A stretch of 61,778 nt of DNA. It comes from Oscillospiraceae bacterium. Lineage in GTDB: Bacteria; Bacillota; Clostridia; Oscillospirales; CAG-272. Where the stretch lies: positions 1-61,778 of the forward strand of contig SVUA01000008.1 in NCBI GenBank assembly GCA_015063485.1. Reading direction: 5' to 3'. Made by a program: the position numbers and the translations under genes. Numbering within the stretch: position 1 is the stretch's first letter; the number at the start of each line of letters is the position of its first letter. Positions 51,674-61,778 of this stretch are shown here, piece after piece. Under the pieces are notes generated by a model that worked only from the letters and a program-made list of their open reading frames with translations, ran no database searches and had not been told where the DNA came from.

Positions 51674-51680
51674 AACTAAA

Positions 51681-51879
51681 CACTTCAGGGATTGGTGAAA
51701 TTCCATACCGGCGGTAAAGTCCGCGAACTCTGGTATCAGAGCCGAGCAGGTGAGACTCCTGCACCGACGGTAAAGTCCGGATGAGAGAAGATATCATATG
51801 CGTGAACACTGGAATATTTACGCTCATACATACGTATCTTCTCCCAAAGATCTTTAATTAGATAAAGGGAGAATTTTTT
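51681..51879 (+). promoter_or_regulatory. FMN riboswitch (RFN element) with terminator platform
   Basis: The RFN core is near consensus: CTTCAGGG, TGAAATTCC, CCGGCGGTAAAGTCCGCGA, TGAGACTCCTGCACCGACGG and GTCCGGATG (51683-51783). P1 (CTTC, 51683; GAAG, 51787) competes with an antiterminator: GAGAAGATAT (51785-51794) with GTATCTTCTC (51834-51843). The terminator is TTCTCCC (51839-51845) with GGGAGAA (51867-51873) and six T, and the ATG follows at once. Its 3' arm is also the ribosome site of ribU. FMN binding should favour the terminator and hide the ribosome site. Confidence 0.95.
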
Positions 51880-52657: not shown

Positions 52658-52783
52658 TATCTTATCAAGAGTGGCGGAGGGACAGGCCCTATGAAACCAC
52701 GGCAACCTGCGTTTGAGCGTAAGGTGCTAATTCCGGAAGATGAGACACATTTATCTCCGGGGGAAAGCCTCGGAGATTTTTTT
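52658..52783 (+). promoter_or_regulatory. SAM-I riboswitch (S box) with terminator platform
   Basis: The S-box consensus is clear: CTTATCAAGAG, GGCGGAGGGACAGGCCC, TATGAAACCACGGCAACC and AAGGTGCTAATTCC. P1 pairs TCTTATC (52660-52666) with GATGAGA (52739-52745). The terminator is ATCTCCG (52753-52759) with CGGAGAT (52771-52777) and seven T. An antiterminator is available: CCGGAAGAT (52733-52741) with ATCTCCGG (52753-52760), one bulge. SAM binding should stop transcription before the lipoprotein gene and metK. A long reading frame through the aptamer from its internal ATG 52691 is not a gene. Confidence 0.96.
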
Positions 52784-53516: not shown

Positions 53517-54701
53517 ATGAAAAAAATGCTTTTTACATCAGAATCGGTAACAGAAGGACATCCCGATAAAATCTGCGATAAAATTTCGGACGCTATACTT
53601 GACGAGCTTCTTCGCCAAGACCCTATGTCTCGCGTCGCGTGTGAGACCTTCTGTACCACGGGTCTTGTTACCGTAATGGGAGAGATAACGACAAAGGCTT
53701 ACGTTGATTTCCAGACCATCGTTCGCGAAACTGTCCGCGAGATAGGATATACCCGCGCAAAGTTCGGCTTTGACTGTGACAGCTGCGCGGTCATCAGCTC
53801 TATTCATGAGCAGTCGCCCGATATTGCAATGGGCGTTGACAAATCGCTTGAGGCTAAAGAGGGCGAGATGAACGACGGACTTGATACGGGTGCGGGAGAC
53901 CAAGGACTTATGTTCGGATACGCTTGTAACGAGACAAAAGAGCTTATGCCTCTGCCGATATCCCTTGCTCATAAGCTTGCTATAAGACTTACAGAGGTAA
54001 GAAAGAACGGAACTCTTAGCTATCTCCGTCCTGACGGAAAAACACAGGTGACCGTTGAATATCACGACGACAAGCCTGTTCGTGTTGATACTGTCGTTAT
54101 TTCCTCACAGCATGGCGCGGAGGTCGAGCTTTCGCAGATCCGCGAGGATATTATCCGCGAGGTAATTACGCCTATCGTTCCCGCACAGCTTATGGACGCT
54201 GAAACTAAAATATACGTAAATCCCACGGGACGCTTCGTTGTTGGAGGTCCTGCGGGTGACACGGGTCTTACGGGCCGTAAGATAATCGTTGATACTTACG
54301 GCGGATATGCGCGTCACGGCGGCGGAGCTTTCTCAGGAAAAGATCCGACAAAGGTAGACCGTTCAGCGTCTTACGCGGCGCGTTATATCGCAAAGAATGT
54401 CGTAGCGGCAGGACTTGCCGATAAGTGCGAGGTTCAGGTTGCGTACGCTATCGGTGTTGCTAAGCCCGTTTCGGTCATGATAGATACCTTTGGTACGGGT
54501 AAGGTCGACGAGGAGAAGATCTCGGTGGCAGTAGACAAGCTGTTTGACCTTCGTCCCGCGGCTATTATCAAGAGATTTGACCTTCGCCGTCCGATATACT
54601 GTCAGACTGCGGCTTACGGTCACATGGGACGCGAGGATATCGATCTTCCTTGGGAAAAGACCGATATGGCAGAGGAGCTTAAAAAAGCGCTTAATTTCTA
54701 A
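53517..54701 (+). CDS. metK: S-adenosylmethionine synthetase
   Basis: 394 residues. [23 protein letters not shown], the ATP-binding [12 protein letters not shown] and the P-loop-like [16 protein letters not shown] are diagnostic. It makes SAM from methionine and ATP, in the cytoplasm. It lies downstream of a SAM-I riboswitch and a lipoprotein gene, so feedback repression by its product is expected. The ribosome site is AGAGAGGAAAA. Confidence 0.97.
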
Positions 54702-60806: not shown

Positions 60807-60840
60807 ACGAGAGTTGAGCAAGGCTCAACTCTCGTTTTTT
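60807..60840. terminator. Bidirectional terminator between pepD and a convergent gene
   Basis: CGAGAGTTGAGC-AA-GCTCAACTCTCG followed by TTTTTT on the plus strand and TTTTGTTT on the minus strand. The minus-strand gene ends inside the right arm: its last codons and its TGA are part of the stem. Confidence 0.93.
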
Positions 60841-61322
60841 GTATTTTTAAGCATTTTTTTGAATGTATTTATTACATTTGAAGAGTCATTTTCAAAATCG
60901 AAATAAAGTGATAAAGTGGCGTAATTTTCAAAATCAGCATCAGAATATGTATGAACGGCTACCTCGCTTGCCTGAATTAACAAGCTGCCTAATACTACTA
61001 TCGCATCGGAAAATAAATCCAAAAAGTCATTTGATATATCAACAACGGCATAGCGCTCTTCTTTAAATACATATATCTCTAAAATAGAGCCTGTAAGCGA
61101 AGAAATGTTGACGGCAAGGACGAACATATTGGTAATACGCTCGCGGTCGTCCTCATTAAGAGCGTTTAATACTTCATTTTCTTTTATTGCGTTTAACAGA
61201 TGGTTAGCGTGTCTTTTGTTGAATTTAACTTTATTAAGCGGAGGAATTGTGTCGATGATATCATCTAAATTTTTTAAATATTCTCTTTTGTATATCAAAT
61301 GCGAATCGTATTGGTCTTTCAT
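60825..61322 (-). CDS. Hypothetical protein behind a complex leader RNA
   Basis: 165 residues, acidic, soluble, no signal or membrane segment. Start MKDQYDSHLIYKREYLKNLDD; middle IVVLGSLLIQASEVAVHTY; end FKKMLKNTKNES. I recognise no family. The DNA is clearly more AT-rich than its neighbours (many AAA, TTT, ATA codons), suggesting transfer. A good ribosome site (AAAGGAGAAG) precedes ATG. A consensus promoter lies ~200 nt upstream, with a terminator/antiterminator leader in between, so expression is probably conditional. Next to it are a truncated repeat element and a possible insertion sequence end. Confidence 0.7.
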   Translation of the reverse strand: MKDQYDSHLIYKREYLKNLDDIIDTIPPLNKVKFNKRHANHLLNAIKENEVLNALNEDDRERITNMFVLAVNISSLTGSILEIYVFKEERYAVVDISNDFLDLFSDAIVVLGSLLIQASEVAVHTYSDADFENYATLSLYFDFENDSSNVINTFKKMLKNTKNES

Positions 61323-61357
61323 AATGCTTCTCCTTTGATTATTCTAAAAAACAAAAA

Positions 61358-61513
61358 GTGCGTCCCAATTAAGAGACGCACGAAAAAGTGTTGTCCCTTA
61401 ATTGTTGCCACACAATCTCATTACACACTATAGGAAAATGAGGAAAAAGGAAACACTTTTTACCAAAGATAGTTTCCCAATAATGTGTAATCAAATATTC
61501 GATTGTGTGGCAA
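61358..61513 (-). ncRNA. Candidate structured leader RNA with terminator/antiterminator switch
   Basis: Read on the minus strand. P1: TTGCCACACAATC (61513-61501) with GATTGTGTGGCAA (61417-61405), 13 bp. P2: ATTACACATTAT (61491-61480) with ATAGTGTGTAAT (61431-61420), 12 bp with one G-U. P3: GGAAAC with GTTTCC (61477-61472, 61454-61449). Antiterminator: CAATTAAGGGAC (61404-61393) with GTCTCTTAATTG (61377-61366), 12 bp with one G-U. Terminator: GTGCGTC...GACGCAC (61381-61358) followed by TTTTTGTTTTTT. A further 10-bp perfect match joins AAAAAGTGTT (61461-61452, apical loop) to AACACTTTTT (61392-61383, antiterminator loop). It is not a class I can name. Confidence 0.7.
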
Positions 61514-61517
61514 AATC

Positions 61518-61546
61518 ATTATACCATTATTTTGATTTTTTGTCAA
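61518..61546 (-). promoter_or_regulatory. Consensus promoter of the leader RNA and orphan gene
   Basis: Minus strand TTGACA (61546-61541), 17 nt, TATAAT (61523-61518). The expected start (about 61511) is at the 5' base of helix P1. Confidence 0.9.
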
Positions 61547-61561
61547 TATAAATTTTGCTTT

Positions 61562-61690
61562 TTCAAAGTTTGATTTATCGGTGGGTTTGGTTAAAAAAAT
61601 GGCAAGGCACGAACGAAACGGTTATCATAAAATCTGTAGGGGCTGACGTCCTCGACAGCCCGAGACAAATGGCAAAAAACGGACAAAACG
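61562..61690 (-). repeat. Dispersed TIR element, copy 8 (one end only)
   Basis: TTCAAAGTTTGATTTATCGG starts at 61562, followed by the subterminal GTGGGTTTGGTT...GGCACGAACGAAACGG shared with copy 5. The interior includes TGTAGGGGCTGACGTCCTCGACAG, related to the hairpin arms at 17726. No matching CCGCAATTT end is found before the window ends, so it is truncated or interrupted; the right limit is uncertain. Confidence 0.6.
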
Positions 61691-61696
61691 GGAGGC

Positions 61697-61778
61697 TGAT
61701 ATGTATAGTGTGGTAAGATAGTTTACAGAATGTGAAGAGACATAGTTTACAATTTTGTGGTAAAATAAAGGCATAAAG
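61697..61778 (+). mobile_element. Possible insertion sequence left end (partial)
   Basis: From about TGATATGTATAGTGTGG on, the sequence changes character: ATAGTTTACA is repeated at 61718-61727 and 61742-61751, then GTGGTAAAATAAAGG suggests a transcription signal. Repeated terminal boxes ahead of a gene are typical of insertion sequence ends. No transposase is inside the window, so this is a guess. Confidence 0.3.

What the first reader, a model, noticed from the sequence alone, without database searches (positions are those of the whole stretch)
61358..61546. Unassigned cis-regulatory RNA with aptamer-like domain, loop-loop pairing and a terminator switch
A perfect promoter (TTGACA-N17-TATAAT, minus strand) drives a ~190-nt leader. 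It folds into a long stacked hairpin (13-bp P1, 12-bp P2, smaller P3), then a choice between a 12-bp antiterminator and a 9-bp terminator with U-tract that share bases 61366-61377. The antiterminator loop (AACACTTTTT) is exactly complementary over 10 nt to the apical region of the first hairpin (AAAAAGTGTT), which would couple the two domains through a pseudoknot or kissing contact. The start site falls at the foot of P1. The architecture is that of a riboswitch or RNA-sensing attenuator, but it is not RFN, S-box, T-box, TPP, lysine, purine, cobalamin or c-di-GMP as I know them. It controls an orphan AT-rich gene.
Basis: partly seen in the sequence, partly recalled or inferred. Interest (0 to 1): 0.85.

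Follow-up and report, generated by a model that had tools for sequence, protein, structure and literature searches.

The report
Widespread unlisted terminator-switch leader RNA
The stretch is one copy of an RNA switch, apparently not yet catalogued, that sits at the very start of many messages in gut and rumen bacteria and probably decides whether transcription stops early or continues into surface-protein and other genes; what it senses is unknown.

Summary
At 61511-61352 (minus strand) a sigma-70-type promoter starts a ~160-nt leader with P1 and P2 stems, a terminator, a competing antiterminator, and a long-range pairing between an apical strand (b) and the antiterminator strand (d). It folds far better than shuffles (z -7.9) and reaches no Rfam 15 threshold. 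It is not a one-off: the window's genome has seven model matches, one apparently decayed. A model of the 3' part finds it in 98 of 391 genomes of the class, with up to 28 matches in one genome (25 at E <= 0.001), and in none of the 397 other genomes of a phylum-wide draw. Across 53 diverse copies b:d, terminator and antiterminator covary; b and the terminator arm compete for the same GGAG of d. In 92 of 134 copies P1 begins exactly 6 nt after the -10 box. Downstream genes are diverse; 24 of 100 proteins match BspA-type leucine-rich repeats. Best explanation: a class-wide orphan transcription attenuator, built as a promoter-plus-switch cassette, OFF by default through b:d. That it is a switch is well supported; signal and direction are inferred.

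The parts
61541..61546 (-). -35 box TTGACA
   Evidence: sequence; same in two other copies of the same genome
61518..61523 (-). -10 box TATAAT, 17-nt spacer
   Evidence: sequence; family-wide promoter geometry
61501..61511 (-). P1 5' strand GCCACACAAUC; its first G is the inferred transcription start
   Evidence: -10-to-foot distance is 6 nt in 92 of 134 copies; P1 pair types
61496..61499 (-). AAUA 3' of the P1 5' strand, a recurrent element, unpaired in the window's MFE
   Evidence: AATA within nt 7-26 in 106 of 136 copies against 0.37 in shuffles; at 12-14 nt from the foot in 89 of the 105 copies located
61420..61491 (-). P2 (61491-61480 with 61431-61420) and the apical region between
   Evidence: fold; own versus swapped partners
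61448..61464 (-). conserved GGU plus strand b (AAAAAGUGUUUCCU, 61461-61448)
   Evidence: RRYAAAA at b in 126 of 136 copies, against 7% of shuffled cores holding it anywhere; b:d duplex
61407..61417 (-). P1 3' strand GAUUGUGUGGC
61383..61397 (-). strand d GGGACAACACUUUUU, complementary to b
61366..61404 (-). antiterminator hairpin CAAUUAAGGGAC / GUCUCUUAAUUG
   Evidence: family covariation
61353..61381 (-). intrinsic terminator GUGCGUCUC / GGGACGCAC + U5
   Evidence: family covariation
60825..61322 (-). 165-aa ORF behind the leader; a paralogue (43% identity) lies behind another copy of the leader on contig C5
   Evidence: sub-threshold Pfam hits AdoMet_dc and DUF5905

Best explanation
The element is a cis-acting transcription attenuator: a structured leader RNA with its own promoter, belonging to a class-wide family for which I found no name. 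RNA starts at the foot of P1. P1 and P2 (strands a:c) fold and leave strand b (RRYAAAAA-YGCANNCUCC) exposed at the tip. When d emerges just 3' of P1, b pairs with it, including the GGAG that would otherwise start the antiterminator. The terminator (e:f) then forms and RNA synthesis stops before the gene: default OFF. A signal that hides b, for example by stabilising a local a:b hairpin or by binding the conserved RRYAAAA, frees d to pair with the terminator's 5' arm (d:e), and polymerase reads into the gene. SHOWN by comparison: the family, the fixed promoter-to-P1 geometry, covariation of P1, b:d, d:e and e:f, the shared use of GGAG by b:d and d:e, and the position just in front of genes. INFERRED: the order of events, OFF as default, b-masking as the trigger, and the existence and nature of a signal (small molecule, protein or RNA).
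For: Same architecture in other copies of the window's genome. Family: 98 of 391 class genomes, 58 of 223 genera at E <= 0.01; up to 28 matches at E <= 0.05 in one genome; 0 of the 397 other genomes in the phylum draw at E <= 0.001. b:d own duplex -16.8 kcal/mol, swapped d -11.7, shuffled core -8.8, 136 copies. b:d + terminator: 97.2% of cells paired, 74 cells changed on both sides against 11.8 in shuffles; sliding partners drops pairing to 30-70%. b:d without the A5/U5 part but with GGAG: 93.3%, 49 cells against 10.2. Antiterminator: 82.1%, 38 cells against 15.2. Mean energies: a:c -24.9, b:d -16.8, terminator -15.8, antiterminator -13.6, a:b -10.1; terminator stronger than antiterminator in 106 of 136. 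ORF of 50 aa or more within 100 nt downstream in 105 of 143; co-directional ORF of 80 aa or more within 120 nt in 88 of 118, divergent on the promoter side in 31 of 118. LRR_5 matches on the same strand within 3 kb downstream of 23 of 75 elements, upstream of 0, opposite strand near 1.
Against: No transcription or ligand data. Downstream genes share no pathway, which is unusual for a metabolite riboswitch. The swap test is not decisive copy by copy: own b:d beats at least 95% of swaps in 59% of copies, own d:e in only 38%. Own a:b exceeds swapped pairs only in the 58 short-core copies (-13.1 against -7.7); in the 78 long-core copies there is no difference (-7.8 against -7.5), so the b-masking hairpin is not supported there. 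A shorter b:d contact with the loop could coexist with the antiterminator and favour ON. In the window the antiterminator alone is marginally stronger than the terminator. Shuffle controls do not remove relatedness, and I chose the counted columns by eye. Most analysed copies were found by a terminator pattern, which biases that part of the sample. An assembly labelled Flexilinea, outside the class, has seven R1 matches, unresolved.
Confidence: 0.7

Rival explanations
1. Same attenuator, opposite polarity: b pairs only with the loop of the antiterminator (UGCRUUUUU) and stabilises it as a pseudoknot, so b:d means ON and the signal turns the gene OFF. This is.
For: The loop part of b:d (columns 11-14 with 104-107) is 94.8% paired with two-sided changes in all four pairs, and geometrically can coexist with the d:e stem.
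Against: b also covaries with the GGAG of d that the antiterminator stem needs: columns 17-20 with 95-99 are 91.8% paired and all four pairs show two-sided changes.
Confidence: 0.2
2. The unit is primarily a stand-alone small RNA gene (promoter, structured RNA, terminator); readthrough into the next gene is incidental.
For: The unit has its own promoter and terminator; tandem copies about 200 nt apart occur, the four whose second unit was printed each with promoter-like sequence; 7 of 143 extracted copies had no ORF called in the DNA held.
Against: 105 of 143 are followed within 100 nt by an ORF of 50 aa or more; the antiterminator shows compensation, which a plain sRNA terminator does not need; LRR_5 matches lie downstream, not upstream.
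Confidence: 0.1
3. Peptide-coding (trp-type) or T-box-type attenuator sensing translation or tRNA.
For: Mutually exclusive hairpins before a terminator.
Against: Only 13 of 136 leaders hold a closed ORF of 5 or more codons with a Shine-Dalgarno-like site, at no common place; no T-box or leader-peptide family reaches threshold or overlaps the elements of 15 further loci. The window element has one sub-threshold Phe_leader hit, 16.7 bits against a threshold of 55.
Confidence: 0.03
4. Mobile or repeat DNA element whose inverted repeats mimic RNA structure.
For: Many copies per genome; tandem copies.
Against: Six copies of the window's genome are 53-80% identical pairwise; orientation to genes is consistent; exclusive pairings covary as in RNA; the window copy has no match in phage or plasmid records.
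Confidence: 0.03

Closest known systems
Transcription-terminating riboswitches (general kind)
   Same: Structured 5' domain, strand shared with an antiterminator, intrinsic terminator shortly before the gene (median 31 nt to the called ORF); tandem arrangements exist in known riboswitches (PMC5912903, abstract lines in the listing).
   Different: No ligand known; no Rfam 15 family reaches threshold; targets share no pathway; transcription start is fixed at the P1 foot and the promoter belongs to the repeated unit.
Purine riboswitch yxjA of Bacillus subtilis, strand exchange (PMC9756952, title and abstract lines in the listing)
   Same: Strand exchange during transcription is proposed to decide the outcome.
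   Different: Different structure; here the exchange is proposed to involve a long-range contact between an apical strand and the antiterminator strand across P1.
T-box leaders (features recalled)
   Same: Many copies per genome, terminator/antiterminator choice, long leader.
   Different: No T-box match in the Rfam scans; the downstream families listed are not aminoacyl-tRNA synthetases.
c-di-GMP riboswitches (features recalled)
   Same: Often control adhesins and other surface proteins in Clostridia.
   Different: No Rfam match to those classes; different architecture.

Membership tests
Any Rfam 15 family | score at or above the family's gathering threshold | tested here: not met
   window and 20 loci at gathering threshold, no hit on an element; permissive search: nine sub-threshold hits to unrelated families around the window element, none overlapping the elements of 15 loci
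Riboswitch | expression platform with mutually exclusive terminator and antiterminator | tested here: met
Riboswitch | conserved structured sensor domain with compensatory changes | tested here: met
   P1 pair types, P2 own versus swapped -24.9 against -10.9, b:d
Riboswitch | direct binding of a specific ligand | not testable with these tools
   needs in-line probing or transcription assays
Riboswitch | targets linked by one pathway or transporter (usual, not strict) | tested here: not met
   100 downstream proteins fall in many families: LRR_5 24, DUF6809 7, Zn_Ribbon_1 7, dockerin 3, MazE 3, AMP-binding 2 and others; 60 families in all, 25 shown
T-box | T-box covariance model match | tested here: not met
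Peptide-leader attenuator | short translated ORF with ribosome site at a conserved place | tested here: not met
   13 of 136 leaders, scattered positions
Mobile/repeat element | near-identical dispersed copies without regard to gene orientation | tested here: not met
   53-80% identity among six copies of the genome; downstream association. Target-site duplications were not looked for.

The most novel reading that the evidence does not exclude
A large, undescribed class of regulatory RNA: a portable promoter-plus-switch cassette with the transcription start locked to the first base pair of the sensor stem, present in up to about two dozen copies per genome across one class of gut bacteria, through which one unknown signal (for instance a second messenger or a global RNA-binding protein reading RRYAAAA) sets adhesins, lipoproteins, AbrB-type regulators and many uncharacterised genes together. 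The A5/U5 tracts may even form a U-A-U triple helix around b:d (speculation, not tested).
Probability: 0.4. Interest if true: 0.9.

Novelty: new variant of a known kind. Interest (0 to 1): 0.8.

Why it matters
An RNA family with up to 28 matches in one genome and present in a quarter of the sampled genomes of a class (98 of 391) should be in the catalogues and was not found in Rfam 15, perhaps because its sequence is so variable and its hosts are mostly uncultured. If it senses one signal, it defines an unrecognised regulon of surface proteins in the gut and rumen microbiota, and the signal can now be sought with a defined RNA. The overlapping, covarying pairings make the switching model directly testable by paired mutations.

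Tried and rejected
Searching for relatives of the encoded protein led nowhere: none in genome contigs, none in viral contigs, 0 of the 29 other genus genomes; only the paralogue in the same genome. AlphaFold on the two proteins gave mean pLDDT 55 and was not pursued. The weak AdoMet_dc hit (21.7 bits, cut-off 25, E 2.8e-4) is not shared by the paralogue at E <= 0.1, so no function is claimed. In PADLOC each of the 25 families shown matched one protein of 100, so no concentration of defence genes. The window leader has no blastn match in phage or plasmid records.

Rows dropped before counts: of 150 distinct pattern matches, 14 were left out of the 136-element set (listed): 13 loci judged on sight not to be full elements (L043, L062, L068, L080, L097, L104, L148, L152, L154, L159, L160, L169, L193; some are truncated or decayed copies, some chance matches) and L050, whose best helix was 6 bp. 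For one search only seven (L104, L152, L154, L159, L160, L169, L193) were dropped, leaving 143. The P1 finder gives short helices (7-9 bp) in seven kept copies and misplaces P1 in at least L032. Four of 136 had no anchor. A4 holds 53 of the 54 non-redundant copies; I omitted L134. In one search, 100 of 103 proteins were used (L021, L041, L176 omitted as doubtful ORFs). P1 was defined as the best complementary helix, so its percentage paired is no evidence; the variety of its pairs is. The columns counted in A4 were chosen by eye where register was consistent.

Full report
WHAT IS THERE. The leader folds with z -7.9. In the whole window Rfam 15 at gathering thresholds finds only an FMN and a SAM riboswitch, both elsewhere; a permissive search of 61250-61700 gives nine sub-threshold hits to unrelated families.

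IT IS A FAMILY. A DNA search of the window's own genome found the promoter region again at two places. Their leaders have the same plan with different letters: one in front of a paralogue of the window's protein (43% identity), the other in front of a gene with a weak YpsA/SLOG Pfam hit. A pattern from the terminator (TTTTT-N0-2-GTGCG-N10-18-CGCACTTTTTG) matched in 44 of 395 genomes of the family; the reversed control pattern gave 0 in the genomes listed. Four from distant groups (L152, L154, L159, L160) lack a P1 at the usual place and look like chance. 150 distinct matches were extracted.

REACH. A covariance model of the 3' part (R1, 82 positions) found matches at E <= 0.01 in 98 of 391 genomes of the class, in 58 of 223 genera. 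Scoring there was capped at 11 candidates per genome, and many genomes reached that cap. With full scoring, eight chosen genomes had 7 to 28 matches at E <= 0.05 (the largest, G679, has 25 at E <= 0.001); the window's genome had seven, of which C1:56484 looks decayed. In a phylum-wide draw at E <= 0.001 only the window's own genome matched, 1 of 398; at least 14 of the non-matching genomes belong to the same class. R1 also finds copies whose terminator sequence is quite different, so the first pattern is not what defines the family. Against a strict class limit: an assembly labelled Flexilinea (Chloroflexota, recalled) has seven R1 matches; mislabelling, contamination or transfer is open.

ANATOMY. 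Strand names: a (5' side of the apical region), b (RRYAAAAAYGCANNCUCC), c (3' strand of P2), d (GGAGYNNUGCRUUUUU, just 3' of P1), e and f (terminator arms). P1 pairs 3 to 11 from the foot each occur as four or more standard pair types. P2 own energy is -24.9 against -10.9 for swapped partners; own is better than all 15 swaps in 125 of 136. RRYAAAA stands at b in 126 of 136; 7% of shuffled cores contain it anywhere. AATA follows the P1 5' strand in 106 of 136, against 0.37 in shuffles.

THE SWITCH. b:d energy is -16.8 on average against -11.7 with another copy's d and -8.8 with shuffled cores; 59% of copies beat at least 95% of swaps; for d:e the means are -14.1 and -10.0, and 38% of copies do so. 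On an alignment of 53 diverse copies (A4), b:d plus the terminator has 97.2% paired cells and 74 two-sided changes (shuffles 11.8); sliding partners by 1-3 columns lowers pairing to 30-70%. The antiterminator d:e has 82.1% paired and 38 two-sided changes (shuffles 15.2). b covaries with the very GGAG that d:e needs (columns 95-99). So two covarying helices compete for one strand, the mark of a switch. Energies favour termination when b is free (window: a:c -19.9, b:d -13.8, terminator -15.0, antiterminator -15.5, a:b -9.1). From this I infer default OFF and relief by masking b. The masking hairpin a:b is supported by swaps only in the 58 short-core copies, not in the 78 long-core copies; in the latter b varies little, which weakens the test.

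PROMOTER LOCKED TO THE RNA. In 134 copies, the -10 box has at most one mismatch in 114; the distance from it to the P1 foot is 6 nt in 92 and 7 in 9; the spacer is 17 in 102; TG of an extended -10 is present in 103; the -35 box has at most one mismatch in 78 (the script allowed distances of 2-12 and spacers of 16-19). RNA therefore very likely starts with the first paired base of P1. Tandem units about 200 nt apart occur (L235, L236, L237, L244, L257); in the four whose second unit was printed, it carries promoter-like sequence. Promoter and leader thus behave as one cassette.

TARGETS. 105 of 143 copies have an ORF of at least 50 aa starting within 100 nt after the terminator. Co-directional ORFs of 80 aa or more lie within 120 nt in 88 of 118, against 31 of 118 on the promoter side. 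Of 100 downstream proteins, 24 match LRR_5 (BspA type), 7 DUF6809, 7 Zn_Ribbon_1, 3 dockerin, 3 MazE, 2 AMP-binding enzymes; others are scattered or unmatched. In three genomes with many copies, 23 of 75 elements have an LRR_5 match on the same strand within 3 kb downstream, none within 3 kb upstream, one on the other strand (the LRR list was cut, so these are lower bounds). Such genomes hold many LRR_5 stretches (44 to 108), so the link is one of position, not exclusive, and I did not measure enrichment over all genes.

ALTERNATIVES. Peptide leader: 13 of 136 leaders hold a short ORF with a Shine-Dalgarno-like site, at no common position. T-box and other Rfam classes: no match at threshold and none overlapping elements. 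Mobile element: six copies of the window's genome are 53-80% identical pairwise and the family is gene-oriented. Stand-alone sRNA: possible as a by-product, but it does not explain the compensated antiterminator or the gene position.

NOVELTY. Eight literature searches and term searches in three surveys of structured RNAs found no description (listings and passages only); an unnamed entry in the unread supplements of such a survey, notably PMC8040213, remains possible. As a kind of thing it is a terminator/antiterminator leader, hence a new variant of a known kind. Its spread, copy number, locked start site and overlapping covarying pairings are unusual. The ligand, if any, is unknown.

LIMITS. 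Everything rests on sequence. Most named hosts are assemblies from metagenomes. The one isolate seen among the carriers, Ruminococcus bromii 5AMG (L199), has a single R1 match, a mismatched P1 and the called ORF 145 nt away, so it may be decaying and is not a good test host. Confidence in the best explanation was lowered slightly on checking, because the copy-by-copy swap results and the Flexilinea matches had been left out.

Noticed in passing
window 51677-51796 (+) and 52659-52746 (+): FMN riboswitch (103 bits) and SAM riboswitch (75 bits); the SAM one lies upstream of an ORF at 53517-54701 that reads like S-adenosylmethionine synthetase (recognised by eye).
   Followed up: no
L022, L034, L047, L059, L137, L200, L231: A small, mostly cysteine-rich protein family (..KxVIDITGxEL..) recurs right behind the leader; its family was not looked up on its own.
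   Followed up: no
L044, L055, L062, L096, L242, L249, L250: AbrB/MazE-like small regulators, judged by eye from the translations, recur behind or near the leader; three of the 100 scanned proteins match MazE_antitoxin.
   Followed up: partly
L234 (G000:C1:56484-56542 +) and L199:7240-7402 (+), Ruminococcus bromii 5AMG: Copies that look decayed: the first lacks an obvious terminator hairpin, the second has a mismatched P1.
   Followed up: partly
L043:1270-1536 (+): A 3' half of the element follows what looks by eye like a tRNA gene and a terminator, as if truncated.
   Followed up: no
L050:5400-5700 (+): An IMG/VR viral contig carries a variant of the element in front of a long ORF, so prophages may carry it.
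   Followed up: no
L120, G1181 (labelled Flexilinea): Seven matches to R1 in an assembly labelled outside the class; mislabelling, contamination or transfer not resolved.
   Followed up: partly
window 60825-61322 (-): Orphan 165-aa protein with a sub-threshold AdoMet decarboxylase hit to residues 110-162; one paralogue in the genome, none in the 29 other genus genomes searched.
   Followed up: partly
L078:12-95 (-): A Gut-1 RNA (RF01706, 56.9 bits) lies in the same fetched stretch as an element.
   Followed up: no
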